A stretch of DNA of 64,000 nucleotides from a virus, in the IMG/VR virus record IMGVR_UViG_3300034073_002480, positions 1 to 64,000 of that record; one strand, given 5' to 3'. Every line of letters starts with the position of its first letter. The first letter of the stretch is position 1. This document shows, one piece after another, positions 18,634-62,764 of the stretch. The position numbers and the translations under genes were made by a program. The notes under the pieces are model-generated. The model worked only from the letters and a program-made list of their open reading frames with translations, searched no databases and had not been told where the DNA came from.

Positions 18634-20217
18634 ATGTCTTCAATTTTTAATATTCCTCAAGAGCAAGCAAAACTATCTGGTATTTATGTAATTCGTAATA
18701 CAACCAATAATAAAATCTATGTTGGTTCTGCTGTAAATTTGCAAAATCGATTCTGGATTCATTTCTCAAGACTTCGTGCTAACAATCATATTAATAAACA
18801 CCTACAAGCATCATTTAATAAAAATGGTGAGAATAGTTTTACTTTCAACTTATTAGAGATTGTTGAAGATAAAGATGAGCTTATTAATCGTGAACAACAT
18901 TATATTGATACTTTACAACCTCATTATAATATTGCTAAACAAGCAGGTCGTCCACCTCTAGTTGAATGGACAGATGAAATGCGTCAAAAACACAGTGATA
19001 TGATGCGTAATCGTGTCCTACCAAAAGAAACTAAAGCTAAAATACTAGATGCTCTGAATCGTGGTCGTGCTAATTATTTTGCTAGACCTGAAGAGGATAG
19101 AGTAGAACATCGAAAGAAGATTTCACAAGCTTTGACAGGTCGTACACTATCTGAGGAACATAGAAAGAAATGTGGGCTTGCTATGTTAGGCAAAAAATTG
19201 ACAGAGGAGCATAAGCAACAGATTCGTGAAGTCCACAGTAAAGATTATATTGTTATCAGCCCTACTGGTGAGCATCATGAAATTAGTGGGTTGTTTTTGT
19301 TTGCCCAACAATATGAACTTGATGAATCAGCACTAGCATCTTGTGCGAGAGGTGAATATAAACACCACAAAGGATGGCAATGTTTCCGTGTTGAAGATTT
19401 CAGTGAAGATAAGATACAAGATCCAACAACTTTTCATATTAAAGGTGTTACAACTTATATTGTAACAAAACCAGATGGCACTGAAGAGACAACAACTAAT
19501 CTGTATGAGTTCGCAAGACAAAATGGATTAGATGGTTCATCAATGCGTAAAGTTGTTTTAGGAAAACTTGCACATTATAAACAGTATAGGGTGCGTGAAG
19601 AGGGTACAGAACTACAACCATTGCCAAAGCGCAAAAAACCAACTATTGATCCAACAAATACACATCACTTTGTTTGCACAGCACCTGATGGTACAGAATA
19701 CACGACGACAAATATGCCAGAATTTGCTCGTGAGCATGGTATTTGCAAAGAAGCTATGCGTAATGCAGCGAAGGGACGTTTACGCCAATACAAAGGTTGG
19801 CTTTGTCGTTATACACCAGAGACTTTAGCCAAACTAACTCCCGAACAACAAGCGGAAGTACAAGCTAACTTTGCCTACCAAGCTCAGTACCCCGATGGTA
19901 AACCCCAATCACCTGAAGATAGGCAACGTATGATTGATCTCTCTCGCACACCTGAAGCTCTAGCAAAAAGAAGTGCTTCTAGGAAAGGTAAGCGACCTAA
20001 TGCTGAGCAATTACAAAATCTGTCTCTTGGGCATTGTAAACGTACTTTTGTAGTGACAACACCAGAAGGTGAAGAAATCATAACCAAACAACTTGTACAG
20101 TTTGCTAAATCTGTAGGATCACATGGATCAGGTTTTTATAAGTCTTTAAAAACTGGTCAACCACATAAAGGTTATACAGTGCGTGAGATCACTGACCAAC
20201 AACAATCTGTGGTATAA
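18634..20217 (+). CDS. GIY-YIG homing endonuclease with four repeated DNA-binding modules
   Basis: 527 residues. The nuclease domain (about 15-100) has GIYVIRN, IYVGSA and the RFWIHFSRLR helix. NUMOD3-like segments follow (GRTLSEEHRKK, GKKLTEEHKQQ). Four modules of about 50 residues then recur, starting near 205, 272, 342 and 468, each of the form (Y/F)xVxxPxGxxxxxxxLxxFAxxxGL then GxxxxxKGWxC or YRV. These look like NUMOD1/IENR1 recognition units. Being downstream of the capsid gene is a common site for free-standing homing endonucleases. Confidence 0.9.
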   Translation: MSSIFNIPQEQAKLSGIYVIRNTTNNKIYVGSAVNLQNRFWIHFSRLRANNHINKHLQASFNKNGENSFTFNLLEIVEDKDELINREQHYIDTLQPHYNIAKQAGRPPLVEWTDEMRQKHSDMMRNRVLPKETKAKILDALNRGRANYFARPEEDRVEHRKKISQALTGRTLSEEHRKKCGLAMLGKKLTEEHKQQIREVHSKDYIVISPTGEHHEISGLFLFAQQYELDESALASCARGEYKHHKGWQCFRVEDFSEDKIQDPTTFHIKGVTTYIVTKPDGTEETTTNLYEFARQNGLDGSSMRKVVLGKLAHYKQYRVREEGTELQPLPKRKKPTIDPTNTHHFVCTAPDGTEYTTTNMPEFAREHGICKEAMRNAAKGRLRQYKGWLCRYTPETLAKLTPEQQAEVQANFAYQAQYPDGKPQSPEDRQRMIDLSRTPEALAKRSASRKGKRPNAEQLQNLSLGHCKRTFVVTTPEGEEIITKQLVQFAKSVGSHGSGFYKSLKTGQPHKGYTVREITDQQQSVV

Positions 20218-50602: not shown

Positions 50603-51736
50603 ATGCAATACAAGATTTGTGACTTTAATAATAAGCAAATTCTTCCTGAGCTTAAAAAACAAGGAATTTACAAGATCGAGACATCTGATAACAGATGTTA
50701 TGTAGGTAGCGCAGGACGTAATTTTAGACATAGATGGACTGGGCATCTACATTCCTTACGAAACAACAAACATCATTCTCAGTATTTGCAGAATATCTTC
50801 AATAAATATGGTGAAGATTTTCTACAGTTTTCTATTTTGGAAGTCGTTACTAAAGATAAAGAGCAGCTTATAAGTCGTGAACAGTATTGGATTGATTTGC
50901 TACAACCTTGTCTGAATATTTGCCCTAATGCTGGTAACAATCTTGGTTACAAACACACAGAAGAATTTAAATTAAATAGGTCAAAACAGTCTAGAGAAAA
51001 GAGTGATTTTGAAGGTGTTGTAATAACACAGACAGGTAGATTCAGCGCTCAAATCTATGTACGTGGTAACAGAGTAGGTCTAGGGTGCTATGGCACACGT
51101 GAGGAAGCATTACAAGCTAGAGAAGAAGGTAAACTAACTTTCTGGAATGACTCCGTAGATGCAATGTCTGAAGAAGAGTTGGCTGTTTTTATAAAGCAAC
51201 GTAAAGAAAGTAGAAATGGTTATCTGATGATGCCATCAAAAACTGGTGAGTACTATATAGATTTCCAGCGAAATAGGTATATTTTTAAACATACTAGACC
51301 TAAATACCACTGTAAGTATTTTAAAACTCTTGAAGAGGCAGTAATCTACAGGGATGCATATCTGGCTTCAGGTTGTAGTTTAGAAACACCTAAAAAAGTT
51401 GCAAACTCTGGCGAGAAGCATATTAGAGTTACTGATTGTGGTAACTATAGATTCTATATTAGAAAGCCTAATTATAGTCAGATTTTTAAGACATTAGAAG
51501 AAGCTGTTGCCGCGAGAGATGCTTATTTTGCAAAAGACTATAAAGAAACTAGCTCTAGAAAACCACCAAAATCTGGTCATAAACTTATAAGAGAGACTCG
51601 CTATAACACTTACGAGTTTAGGCACAGTCCAACTAAACATCATAAATACTTCCCAACACTTGAAGAAGCAGTCGCGTACAAACAACAGTACCTCGAAAAT
51701 CTAAAAGCCTCACACCAGAATCCAACTGATGACTAG
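50603..51736 (+). CDS. GIY-YIG homing endonuclease with repeated AP2-like modules
   Basis: 377 residues. The nuclease domain (about 18-105) has GIYKIET, CYVGSA and RHRWTGHLHSLR. After a short NUMOD-like segment come three or four AP2-like units: GRFSAQIYVRGNRVGLGCYG (about 147-166), GEYYIDFQRNRYIFKHTRPK, NYRFYIRKPNYSQIFKT and TYEFRHSPTKHHKYFPTLEE. Each ends with a TLEEAV(I/A) helix. The gene sits between portal and tRNA cluster. Confidence 0.9.
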   Translation: MQYKICDFNNKQILPELKKQGIYKIETSDNRCYVGSAGRNFRHRWTGHLHSLRNNKHHSQYLQNIFNKYGEDFLQFSILEVVTKDKEQLISREQYWIDLLQPCLNICPNAGNNLGYKHTEEFKLNRSKQSREKSDFEGVVITQTGRFSAQIYVRGNRVGLGCYGTREEALQAREEGKLTFWNDSVDAMSEEELAVFIKQRKESRNGYLMMPSKTGEYYIDFQRNRYIFKHTRPKYHCKYFKTLEEAVIYRDAYLASGCSLETPKKVANSGEKHIRVTDCGNYRFYIRKPNYSQIFKTLEEAVAARDAYFAKDYKETSSRKPPKSGHKLIRETRYNTYEFRHSPTKHHKYFPTLEEAVAYKQQYLENLKASHQNPTDD

Positions 51737-51779
51737 GGATTACAAAACCCTTGTTTTAAGCACTAAACTAGTGAGGCAT

Positions 51780-51856
51780 TGGCTTGTCAGGAAGGATTTG
51801 AACCTTCGACATCCGAGGTAGAAGCTCGGTGTTCTTATCCGCTGAACTACTGACAA
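51780..51856 (-). tRNA. tRNA-Arg (anticodon UCU)
   Basis: Acceptor TTGTCAG pairs with CTGACAA, discriminator G, and CCA is encoded. The anticodon stem is CCGAG/CTCGG with loop CTTCTAC. The T-arm is GAAGG TTCAAAT CCTTC. The 5' end abuts the tRNA-Gln 3' end with no spacer. It reads AGA codons, which are common in this genome. Confidence 0.9.
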
Positions 51857-51927
51857 TTCCTTCGCTACGGGTCGAACGTAGAATAGAAGATCCAAATTCT
51901 TCTGTGATACCATTTCACTACAAAGGA
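51857..51927 (-). tRNA. tRNA-Gln (anticodon UUG), no encoded CCA
   Basis: Acceptor TCCTTTG/CGAAGGA, D-stem GTG/CAC, anticodon stem GAAGA/TCTTC with loop ATTTGGA (TTG), T-arm CTACG TTCGACC CGTAG. The discriminator A is followed directly by the first base of tRNA-Arg, so the CCA must be added after cutting. Confidence 0.9.
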
Positions 51928-60214: not shown

Positions 60215-60876
60215 TATTCACCTATTTTAGTAAAATATTTTGTCCGACAAGTACCATACTGTGTAACTTTCCAACCTCTCTCTAACAAGAAACTTTCTAT
60301 TTCTTTCGAGGATAATCGCAAAGAAGGTAGTCTTTTTTTAATTTCAGGTATAGAGAATTTTCTAGTAAAAGAGTTAGCAATCTCGATAATAGCTGCATCA
60401 ACACTTATAGAAGCACTGTTTAAATCGGAATTTTCCCAATGATATGCTTTTAAAATAGCATTAGTAATAGTAGAGAATTTAATCTCAATAGCACCAAATA
60501 CAGGTAATAGTTTCTGTGTTAAAACGTTGTAAGCTTCTGTAATTGTTATGCGATCAGATTTACCATCAAAAGTTATTACCCAATTACAACTATCATCATC
60601 TCTTTCTACGTCAAAACCAGATAATACTTGAGGGTTATTTCTAAAGTATAAAGCTAGTTTAGAATCACTAAGTCTAATACCTTTTTCTTGTTGTGCAATA
60701 ATGTGATCCAACTTCATCTGTGCTTCAACTTGAAGTTGGATTAAAACAGGAAGCATTTCAGCAACTATTTTTTCAGTGTTTTCTCTACTACAGGCTGTTG
60801 CCTCAACTAAAACTTGAACTGCTAATTCTGTATCCACTGGCTTTCTGCTTAAAGCAGTTAGTAATTTATCACTCAT
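60214..60876 (-). CDS. Hypothetical protein with possible winged-helix end
   Basis: 220 residues, helical. The last 60 (SFTRKFSIPEIKKRLPSLRLSSKEIESFLLERGWKVTQYGT) look like a winged helix-turn-helix, as in some phage DNA-binding proteins. The upstream region carries repeated GTATG boxes, so it may be a regulator acting on them. That is an inference. Confidence 0.55.
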   Translation of the reverse strand: MSDKLLTALSRKPVDTELAVQVLVEATACSRENTEKIVAEMLPVLIQLQVEAQMKLDHIIAQQEKGIRLSDSKLALYFRNNPQVLSGFDVERDDDSCNWVITFDGKSDRITITEAYNVLTQKLLPVFGAIEIKFSTITNAILKAYHWENSDLNSASISVDAAIIEIANSFTRKFSIPEIKKRLPSLRLSSKEIESFLLERGWKVTQYGTCRTKYFTKIGE

Positions 60877-60895
60877 CTAGTATACCTTAAAATCT

Positions 60896-61060
60896 GTATG
60901 ACTTTATTATATCATACTTTTTTAAAATAAAAATCATACAAAAAATAAAAAGTATGTTTTGATATAGCTTCTAGCCTCAAAAGTATGAAATACTTATCAT
61001 AATTAATATATGTATGAGCTTGAAAACGTTGCAGTAAGCCAATATTGAAAAAGTATGATG
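60896..61060. repeat. Cluster of AAAAGTATGAT boxes upstream of the 60876 gene
   Basis: GTATG boxes on both strands: 60896 (+), 60911 (-), 60933 (-), 60947 (+), 60979 (+), 61012 (+) and 61048 (+), four of them with an A-run before GTATG(A). Spacing is 15-36 bp and the DNA is very AT-rich. This could be an operator array or replication iterons. The rest of 60877-61136 shows no gene. Confidence 0.6.
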
Positions 61061-61136
61061 GCTGGCTTTTATCTATTCTCTCTGAAAAAAACAAACATCC
61101 GTCCGATAGGACATCCTTGCCACAACAAACATAGTC

Positions 61137-61238
61137 TCATCCTAGTGCATAGTCCTCTAACTCATCATAAAAAGCAAAAGTACGTTCCAAAACTTCTGTA
61201 CCATCAGTACAAACCCAAATCAAATACCACATACCCAT
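61137..61238 (-). CDS. Possible 33-aa protein
   Basis: MGMWYLIWVCTDGTEVLERT continuing FAFYDELEDYALG. Coding-like codon use, but short, and it lies in the 3' region after the tmRNA, so it may share its transcript. No relative recognised. Confidence 0.35.
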   Translation of the reverse strand: MGMWYLIWVCTDGTEVLERTFAFYDELEDYALG

Positions 61239-61284
61239 AAACCGAAACTGTGTAAGATAGGAAACTGTGTTCATAAATGCAAAG

Positions 61285-61577
61285 ATCATAGAAAGGGAAG
61301 ATGAAGACAACAAAGGGATAGCTTTTACACTACCCCTTCATTTTCTAAGCTGCTACCAAGGTGGATTTACGGGCTTTGAAAGATACGATATTGTTCGCAT
61401 TTACTTTTTGCTATCTAGTGATATTGCTCATAAAACTCACACATGAATCTAGTTTTAATTACCAGTCGAGACCCTTATACCCACTTATAAAAGTCCTAAC
61501 ACCTTGGTAGCTAATGTAGGTAGCTGGAGTCGAACCAGCGTGTTGCTAATCTCCCTAGATTCCTCAATAACACTACT
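61285..61577 (-). ncRNA. ssrA: Permuted two-piece tmRNA (ssrA), phage-borne
   Basis: On the minus strand the 3' tRNA half comes first: T-arm GCTGG TTCGACT CCAGC (61523-61539), then acceptor strand TACCTAC (61516-61522), discriminator A, and no CCA. About 30 bases later the 5' half starts with GTGGGTA (61478-61484), which pairs with TACCTAC (seven pairs, one G-U). GGGTCTCGACTGG (61462-61474) corresponds to the conserved D-loop region. Helix P2 forms between CTAGATTC (61445-61452) and GAATCTAG (61555-61562), extended by TAAT/ATTA. The tag frame runs 61398 to 61345: ANNIVSFKARKSTLVAA then TAG, preceded by AAAGTAAAT. Downstream, AAGGGGTAG / CTATCCCTT and ATGAAG / CTTCAT may form a pseudoknot. The tag is cyanobacterial in type. 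The exact ends, chiefly the 3' end, are not seen. Confidence 0.88.
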
Positions 61578-62208
61578 ATATTAATTCTTTTTCTATGTTG
61601 GTGTCAATATCATAGAAAAAACAATCGGTGTCGGCAGAAACCCATCTATCACCCATAACTTCAACACTTAGGAAAGAAGTATCAACTTTCCATTTAGATA
61701 GTTTTTGTATATCCTTGTTAGTCACCCAATTACTATCGCGCCACAATAACCTGTTGTTAGGCATCAGATACAGCCGACCATCATCTCCAGCAAGCAAGTG
61801 TCCACACTTATAATCTTGAGGCTCATCACTGTAGCTATTATCGAACCAATCAATAGTGAACATATAAGTTGCTTCGATATACGTCCTGTCTTTAAGTGTG
61901 ATTTGGCACTTATGATACTTCAGAAAATCATAGGTAACAACATGAGCATTTTCACTAAACATATCCCATAGCTGGTGATAGTGGAAAGGTATGTCAGGGG
62001 TAGTGGGTACTTTAGTATAGACTTCAGAAATAGGTACTCTACTTCTCATAGCGCCATTATCGGCAAGCACATGGAACGTCAGTATCTTGCCACTGATGGA
62101 CTGTACAGCAAAGCATATAACTTCATACCAGTTATCTTTGTCCTGTTCATTCTTTGTGAACCAAGATTCACGTACCAAAGCACGAAAATGAGGGATGTTA
62201 AAGTTCAT
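61576..62208 (-). CDS. Hypothetical protein, 210 aa
   Basis: From the ATG at 62208; a TTG upstream would add four residues. An alpha/beta, tryptophan-rich protein (WYEVICFAVQSISGKILTFHVLADNG, then YDFLKYHKCQITLKDRTYIEATYMF). Its end carries the tmRNA promoter. The start overlaps the nucleotidyltransferase region by none and follows within 2 bp. No family recognised. Confidence 0.6.
   Translation of the reverse strand: MNFNIPHFRALVRESWFTKNEQDKDNWYEVICFAVQSISGKILTFHVLADNGAMRSRVPISEVYTKVPTTPDIPFHYHQLWDMFSENAHVVTYDFLKYHKCQITLKDRTYIEATYMFTIDWFDNSYSDEPQDYKCGHLLAGDDGRLYLMPNNRLLWRDSNWVTNKDIQKLSKWKVDTSFLSVEVMGDRWVSADTDCFFYDIDTNIEKELI
61578..61607 (-). promoter_or_regulatory. Promoter of the tmRNA gene
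   Basis: The minus strand shows TTGACA (61602-61607), 18 bp, then TAATAT (61578-61583). It lies inside the end of the 61576-62208 gene. The spacer is a copy of the dispersed motif. Initiation would fall near 61570, just before the P2 strand of the 3' half. Confidence 0.5.
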
Positions 62209-62209
62209 A

Positions 62210-62764
62210 CTAAAATTCAAAATCTTCTATATCTTGACTCAAACCAACAAAACCATAGTCAGGGAATTTCGCCCGTATTTTATCTATATAACCAACACCA
62301 AAGGCTTCTTGTACCTGTCTAATTGTTTTCTCTTCTACGGTCTTCAGAAATTCTGGTGTAAAATAAGTAGTTTGATTTTTATACCATATACGACAGATAG
62401 ATAAAGAAAAATGTGATAACACAGACTCAATGACAGGTTTACGCATTACCATAACTTGCACTTTTTGACTATCATAATAAAAAGTTAAGATCCACTTCAA
62501 TCTATCACTTTTTATATAATCATCATCGTCAATAAAGTCAGCACTGTGAGCTTGGCTATTATCAATTAAACCTAAGTCGTATAGTCTCCGATGTAATTCT
62601 GATAATGACATACTGCCTATATACATATAGAAGTCAAGATCGGTAGCTTCACGACCAAAATACCAGTCTCTAGGCGCACCACCAGCTAAAATACAGAAGG
62701 GGTCAATAGCTTCTAGTTTTGTCAGGAGAATATTAGCTATAAGTTGTTGTTTTTGGATGTCCAT
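62210..62764 (-). CDS. Nucleotidyltransferase (poly(A) polymerase / CCA-adding head domain)
   Basis: 184 residues from the ATG at 62764; longer frames run into the upstream gene. ILAGGAPRDWYFGREATDLDFYMY (about 25-48) is the catalytic signature: GG (28-29), RD (32-33) and DLD (42-44) chelating metal. The C-terminal RNA-binding part typical of CCA enzymes is not visible (usual length about 400), so the substrate is uncertain. A CCA-adding or tRNA-repair role would suit the tRNA-Gln and tmRNA, which lack CCA. Confidence 0.8.
   Translation of the reverse strand: MDIQKQQLIANILLTKLEAIDPFCILAGGAPRDWYFGREATDLDFYMYIGSMSLSELHRRLYDLGLIDNSQAHSADFIDDDDYIKSDRLKWILTFYYDSQKVQVMVMRKPVIESVLSHFSLSICRIWYKNQTTYFTPEFLKTVEEKTIRQVQEAFGVGYIDKIRAKFPDYGFVGLSQDIEDFEF

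What the first reader, a model, noticed from the sequence alone, without database searches (positions are those of the whole stretch)
61285..61577. Phage-encoded permuted two-piece tmRNA with a cyanobacterial-type tag
The minus strand encodes a tRNA-like T-arm and acceptor strand first, then about 30 bases later the other acceptor strand, the conserved D-loop region and a tag frame ANNIVSFKARKSTLVAA-stop. Acceptor pairing (seven pairs), P2 pairing (eight plus four pairs) and the tag ending VAA all agree, and none was used to find the others. Permuted tmRNA is known from cyanobacteria and alphaproteobacteria, and one-piece tmRNA from mycobacteriophage Bxz1 relatives. A permuted one in a phage is, to my knowledge, rare or undescribed. 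A phage tag could steer host trans-translation or rescue ribosomes late in infection.
Basis: partly seen in the sequence, partly recalled or inferred. Interest (0 to 1): 0.96.

Follow-up and report, generated by a model that had tools for sequence, protein, structure and literature searches.

The report
Cyanophage-encoded two-piece tmRNA gene
A virus of cyanobacteria carries its own circularly permuted (two-piece) tmRNA, the RNA that frees stuck ribosomes and tags unfinished proteins; such phage genes are already known, but this one belongs to an overlooked lineage whose relatives show unusual variants.

Summary
Window 61345-61572 (minus) matches Rfam tmRNA_permuted (RF04321) at 54.7 bits, above its curated cut-off of 47. 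It has a seven-pair acceptor stem with the alanine-identity pair G3-U70, a canonical T-arm, P2 helices and the tag ANNIVSFKARKSTLVAA. ARAGORN misses it. The record is a 138.7-kb phage, distantly related to the Pseudanabaena siphophages PA-SR01 and Pam2.

The claim that a permuted phage tmRNA is rare or undescribed does not hold. Buchholz et al. 2022 (PMC9004378) counted 53 two-piece tmRNAs in phage genomes, and I confirmed cyanobacterial-type ones in S-CAM1, S-SSM7 and Sf-FS3.

The window's gene belongs to a separate phage clade with members in PA-SR01, Pam2 and several viral contigs, unannotated in both isolates. Acceptor stems vary, yet all keep seven pairs and G3-U70. Three genes carry a group-I-like intron in the T-loop, a combination absent from the published list of tmRNA gene forms; one spacer holds a tRNA gene; several tags end in V instead of A. 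Most likely function: extra ribosome rescue during infection, using host SmpB (inferred). The window gene is a new member of a known kind; its intron-bearing relatives are the most novel part.

The parts
61578..61607 (-). sigma-70-like promoter: TTGACA, 18 nt, TAATAT (10 of 12), directly upstream of the acceptor piece
   Evidence: Best-scoring site of the six found in 60800-62400; shuffles give 6.7 by chance, so weak alone. Relatives have a TA-rich box at a similar distance before the conserved start of the gene.
61515..61571 (-). acceptor piece of the permuted tmRNA: P2 3' strands, T-arm, acceptor 3' strand and discriminator A73 (CCA not encoded; the next bases are TTA)
   Evidence: RF04321 match 61572-61345; direct reading. 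The 5' end is inferred from conservation.
61555..61562 (-). P2 outer helix, 3' strand GAATCTAG
   Evidence: 8 of 8 pairs with 61445-61452
61544..61551 (-). P2 inner helix, 3' strand GATTAGCA
   Evidence: 7 of 8 pairs with 61457-61464 (direct reading)
61523..61539 (-). T-arm GCTGG TTCGACT CCAGC
   Evidence: 5 of 5 pairs, canonical seven-base T-loop
61516..61522 (-). acceptor 3' strand TACCTAC
   Evidence: 7 of 7 pairs with 61478-61484, G3-U70
61485..61514 (-). intervening spacer of 30 nt, expected to be removed by processing
   Evidence: direct reading; removal is inferred
61478..61484 (-). acceptor 5' strand GTGGGTA (start of the coding piece)
61462..61477 (-). D-region TAAGGGTCTCGACTGG
   Evidence: matches the conserved AAUGGUUUCGAC region in the RF04321 alignment
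61445..61464 (-). P2 5' strands TGGTAATT and CTAGATTC
61345..61398 (-). tag reading frame ANNIVSFKARKSTLVAA plus TAG stop; resume codon GCG
   Evidence: RF04321 alignment
61309..61342 (-). 14-pair hairpin just after the tag; a comparable stem follows the tag in the relatives
   Evidence: -19.8 kcal/mol, z = -4.0, 0 of 200 shuffles as stable; relatives read

Best explanation
It is a complete phage gene for a permuted, two-piece tmRNA. It is probably transcribed from its own promoter as one precursor. Host RNase P should cut before G1 (61484) and host tRNA 3'-processing and CCA addition should finish the end at A73, leaving an acceptor piece and a coding piece held together by the acceptor and P2 helices. 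Host alanyl-tRNA synthetase would charge it through G3-U70, and host SmpB and EF-Tu would deliver it to stalled ribosomes. The broken protein would receive the charged alanine plus ANNIVSFKARKSTLVAA and be degraded. For the phage this keeps ribosomes available while host DNA and mRNA are being destroyed. Shown here: sequence, structure, conservation of structure under changing sequence, no SmpB gene found in the phage. Inferred: transcription, processing, charging, tagging and the benefit.
For: RF04321 above cut-off. Seven different acceptor stems in the phage clade, each with 7 of 7 pairs and all with G3-U70. Tag frame open and cyanobacteria-like in the window and nine other genes. TA-rich box at a similar distance upstream although the neighbouring genes differ. 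Nine phage genes group together (96/97) apart from host genes, which speaks for long maintenance. No SmpB in seven phage records, while SmpB is found in 11 of 14 control genomes.
Against: No expression data. The closest co-linear relative, G001 (major capsid protein 90% identical), has no tmRNA at the same place, so the gene is dispensable. The promoter match alone is no better than chance. Pam2 and G015 have a non-canonical T-loop, so some members of the clade may be impaired.
Confidence: 0.75

Rival explanations
1. It is a decoy or competitor: made in quantity during infection, it binds host SmpB and stalled ribosomes and blocks or redirects the host's own trans-translation, rather than helping it.
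For: A tagless tmRNA-like RNA of mycobacteriophage DS6A inhibits endogenous tmRNA when expressed in E. coli (as cited in PMC11915505). 177 of 194 sampled Cyanobacteriota genomes have a one-piece form over the cut-off and 12 a permuted form, so the phage RNA may differ in form from its host's. Some relatives have altered tag ends or T-loops.
Against: The window gene keeps the whole set of features needed for charging and tagging, including an open tag frame that ends LVAA. A decoy would not need the tag.
Confidence: 0.09
2. The tag itself is the point: the phage re-labels unfinished (host or phage) proteins with its own tag to change how fast or by which protease they are degraded.
For: The tag differs from the host tags sampled. 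In the clade, tags end VAV, VAVAV or VVV in five of the ten genes, an end not seen in 119 cyanobacterial tags of the ANNIV/ANKIV type.
Against: The window's own tag ends LVAA, like many host tags. No degradation data.
Confidence: 0.1
3. A passenger: a host tmRNA gene picked up by accident and decaying.
For: Absent from the co-linear relative G001. Pam2 and G015 have an abnormal T-loop.
Against: All acceptor, T-arm and P2 helices are intact although the sequence has changed heavily. Tag frames are open. The gene is found in 7 of 10 records longer than 100 kb in this phage group.
Confidence: 0.06

Closest known systems
Rfam RF04321 tmRNA_permuted (merged alpha, beta and cyano permuted tmRNA)
   Same: Gene order, tRNA-like domain, D-region, tag; score above the curated cut-off
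   Different: CCA not encoded; modest score (54.7 against 147.6 for Synechococcus WH7803)
Rfam RF01851 cyano_tmRNA (Prochlorococcus / marine Synechococcus type)
   Same: Same order, tag ANNIV...VAA
   Different: Only 35.5 bits, under the cut-off of 70; the window's clade is separate from these genes in the tree
Permuted tmRNAs of marine cyanophages S-CAM1, S-SSM7, Sf-FS3
   Same: Phage-borne, permuted, cyanobacterial-type tag
   Different: They group with the marine host genes (100/100), not with the window's clade; their tags, with AANNIVAFSR inside, are longer
Permuted tmRNA of OM43 phage Melnitz and pelagimyophages (PMC9004378)
   Same: Phage-borne two-piece tmRNA in aquatic phages
   Different: Alphaproteobacterial type, in Melnitz with a glutamine riboswitch; no riboswitch match in the window
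tmRNAs of the relatives PA-SR01, Pam2 and IMG/VR contigs
   Same: Same clade, promoter-like box, P2 and following hairpin
   Different: Three have an intron-like insert in the T-loop, one has a tRNA in the spacer, two have an 11-base T-loop, five have tags ending in V

Membership tests
permuted tmRNA (RF04321) | Covariance-model score above the curated cut-off (47 bits) | tested here: met
   54.7 bits
permuted tmRNA (RF04321) | Acceptor 3' strand and T-arm encoded before the acceptor 5' strand, with a spacer | tested here: met
permuted tmRNA (RF04321) | Seven-pair acceptor stem with G3-U70 (alanine identity) | tested here: met
permuted tmRNA (RF04321) | TTCRANY T-loop and conserved TCGAC D-region | tested here: met
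   TTCGACT and GGTCTCGAC
permuted tmRNA (RF04321) | Tag frame starting at an Ala resume codon and ending in a small hydrophobic degron before a stop | tested here: met
   GCG...LVAA-TAG
permuted tmRNA (RF04321) | Mature RNA is two pieces | not testable with these tools
   needs northern blot or RNA-seq
permuted tmRNA (RF04321) | Works with SmpB and is charged with alanine | not testable with these tools
   no SmpB gene found in the phage; host SmpB presumed
cyano_tmRNA (RF01851) | Score above the curated cut-off (70 bits) | tested here: not met
   35.5 bits
cyano_tmRNA (RF01851) | Grouping with the Prochlorococcus/Synechococcus permuted genes | tested here: inconclusive
   Separate phage clade, but one origin of all permuted genes is not rejected (p-AU 0.69 and 0.49)
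group I intron (RF00028), for the inserts in PA-SR01, G022 and L355 | Covariance-model match | tested here: not met
   No RF00028 match at E up to 5 in the tmRNA region of PA-SR01, up to 10 in the whole PA-SR01 and G022 records, or up to 0.05 in L355
group I intron (RF00028), for the inserts in PA-SR01, G022 and L355 | U at -1 paired with G in P1, terminal G, and removal restoring the T-arm | tested here: met
   GUUCGAU/GUCGAAC P1, terminal G, restored GAGGG-TTCGATT-CCCTC; P9-like stem kept with other bases in L355 (direct reading)

The most novel reading that the evidence does not exclude
The window's gene belongs to a distinct cyanophage lineage of permuted tmRNAs, in a phylum where most sampled genomes have the one-piece form. 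In this lineage a mobile group-I-like intron sits in the T-loop of the permuted gene in PA-SR01, G022 and L355. 'Permuted plus intron' is not among the published gene forms (standard, intron, permuted), and the insert sits at what I read as the same T-loop position as most known tmRNA introns. The intron is about 88% identical between PA-SR01 and L355 although their tmRNA exons differ, which suggests intron transfer. Tags ending in V add a second departure.
Probability: 0.5. Interest if true: 0.62.

Novelty: new member of a known kind. Interest (0 to 1): 0.45.

Why it matters
Phage tmRNAs are undercounted: ARAGORN misses the window's gene and those of PA-SR01, Pam2, G015, G022, L323 and L355, and the two isolates' records do not annotate one. 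PA-SR01 and Pam2 are cultured phages on cultured Pseudanabaena hosts, so it is directly testable whether a phage-borne two-piece tmRNA works in a host, whether its tag changes protein turnover, and whether a T-loop intron splices in a permuted precursor.

Tried and rejected
A first DNA pattern gave 84 stretches in viral contigs; a filter for a tag ending AA or a T-arm upstream left only the window's own gene. Marker search with the major capsid protein and then whole-record RF04321 scans worked. G001, the closest co-linear relative, was inspected at the homologous site and has no tmRNA. A pseudoknot after the tag (AACCG/CGGTT in PA-SR01) was rejected by eye because relatives break it. Weak RF04321 rows at E = 0.02-1 were not followed and are treated as chance. 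A single origin of all permuted genes could be neither shown nor rejected. The insert was sought in plasmids (none) and in 194 Cyanobacteriota genomes (only short weak matches). The tmRNA form of Pseudanabaena itself could not be tested because no genome named so came up. The strand-dealing control is partly circular, since helices were chosen by eye.

Full report
Observation. The minus strand at 61285-61577 was read directly. It holds, in order, P2 3' strands, a T-arm GCTGG-TTCGACT-CCAGC, the acceptor strand TACCTAC with A73, a 30-nt spacer, the acceptor strand GTGGGTA, a D-region with TCTCGAC, P2 5' strands, and a tag frame ANNIVSFKARKSTLVAA-stop. The acceptor stem is seven of seven pairs with G3-U70, the alanine identity pair (identity role from general knowledge). 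Infernal gives RF04321 (tmRNA_permuted) 54.7 bits, cut-off 47, E = 6.6e-8, and RF01851 (cyano_tmRNA) 35.5 bits, cut-off 70. ARAGORN does not report the gene. A promoter-like TTGACA-18-TAATAT lies directly upstream (not significant alone) and a strong hairpin follows the tag (z = -4.0).

The virus. The window is the first 64 kb of a 138,722-base virus record. Terminase, major capsid, tape-measure and other proteins match the Pseudanabaena siphophages PA-SR01 and Pam2, mostly at about 25-50% identity. That the host is a cyanobacterium is inferred from these relatives and from the tag. A co-linear relative, G001 (about 75% DNA identity over matching parts, capsid 90%), lacks the tmRNA at the homologous site. 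No SmpB gene was found in seven of these phage records, while the control genomes rang, so host SmpB would be needed.

The phage clade. Scans of the relatives' records and DNA patterns found permuted tmRNAs in PA-SR01 (tag AKNNICQFSRKAAPVAA), Pam2 (AKNQIVKFARKSTPVAVAV), G015 (ANNNIVKFARKSALVAVAV), G018 and the near-identical L322 (VNNIVSFSRKATPVAA), G020 (AKNQIVKFARKSTPVAVAV), G022 (AKNNICRLVRKAAPVAV), L323 (AKNNICQFSRKAALVAA) and L355 (GKSNNIVNFSRKSAVVV). Seven different acceptor stems each have 7 of 7 pairs and each keep G3-U70; T-stems are 5 of 5 in all. Of ten records over 100 kb in this group, seven have the gene. The published descriptions of PA-SR01 (PMC10286775) and Pam2 (PMC9382816) do not report one, and their records carry no annotation there. 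L323 and L355 have no detectable capsid match (both are fragments), so their membership in the phage family is open.

Variants in the clade. PA-SR01, G022 and L355 have about 220-230 nt inserted between T59 and T60. Removing it restores a canonical T-arm. The insert has a P1-like helix with U paired to G at the splice site, a terminal G, and a P9-like stem kept with other bases in L355. These are the usual boundary rules for group I introns, and the place matches the main known tmRNA intron site (position 7) as I read PMC11915505. Rfam's general group I model does not match it, so the class is likely but not proven. The aligned part is 88% identical between PA-SR01 and L355 while the exons differ. 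L323 has a tRNA-Trp(CCA) gene inside the spacer; PMC11915505 reports one such case with tRNA-Ala. Pam2 and G015 have an 11-base T-loop and an encoded CCA. Five of the ten genes have tags ending in V; none of 119 cyanobacterial tags of the ANNIV/ANKIV type do.

Relation to hosts. Among 194 sampled Cyanobacteriota genomes, 12 have a permuted tmRNA over the cut-off and 177 a one-piece tmRNA over the cut-off; the E-values show the twelve are not among the 177. A tree of the acceptor-to-tag stretch puts the nine phage genes together (96/97), apart from the permuted Prochlorococcus/Synechococcus genes. Marine cyanophage genes group with the marine hosts instead (100/100). Whether all permuted genes share one origin is undecided (p-AU 0.69 and 0.49). 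The alignment is short and some branches are long.

Literature. Permuted phage tmRNAs are known. PMC9004378 lists 53 two-piece structures among 133 unique phage tmRNAs, 50 of them aquatic, and its Figure 5 legend says that cyanobacterial-lineage genes are shared with associated phages. I confirmed S-CAM1, S-SSM7 and Sf-FS3. PMC11915505 holds 79 bacteriophage tmRNA sequences and defines three main gene forms: standard, intron and permuted.

Verdict. The finding is a real gene and a new member of a known kind, in an overlooked lineage. The more surprising material lies in its relatives: a likely intron inside a permuted tmRNA, and tags with altered ends.

Noticed in passing
L002 4342-4770 minus (PA-SR01, MT234670.1, about 116341-116770): Unannotated permuted tmRNA whose T-loop is interrupted by about 227 nt with group-I-like features; the combination permuted plus intron is not among the published gene forms.
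   Followed up: partly
L138 1154-1576 (G022) and L355 (minus strand, roughly 810-1220): Two more intron-bearing permuted tmRNAs; the intron is 88% identical between L355 and PA-SR01 while the tmRNA exons differ, suggesting intron transfer.
   Followed up: partly
L323 13618-13893: Permuted tmRNA with a tRNA-Trp(CCA) gene inside the spacer between its two acceptor strands.
   Followed up: partly
L094 3900-4110 (Pam2), L137 1500-1720 (G015): Permuted tmRNA with an 11-base non-canonical T-loop, encoded CCA, and tags ending VAVAV.
   Followed up: partly
L356, L357, L358: Permuted tmRNAs in Synechococcus phages S-CAM1, S-SSM7 and Sf-FS3 that the records leave unannotated or cover with a hypothetical protein; tags are long, with an internal ANNIVAFSR.
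   Followed up: partly
window 51706-51927 minus: Cluster of three tRNA genes (Thr-TGT, Arg-TCT, Gln-TTG).
   Followed up: no
window 61576-62220 minus: Protein directly upstream of the tmRNA; matches PHROG 3704 labelled 'ferredoxin' (E = 1e-37) but no Pfam family. Relatives lie 3-5 kb upstream of the tmRNA in PA-SR01 and G018.
   Followed up: partly
window 18634-20217 plus: GIY-YIG homing-endonuclease-like protein just after the major capsid gene.
   Followed up: no
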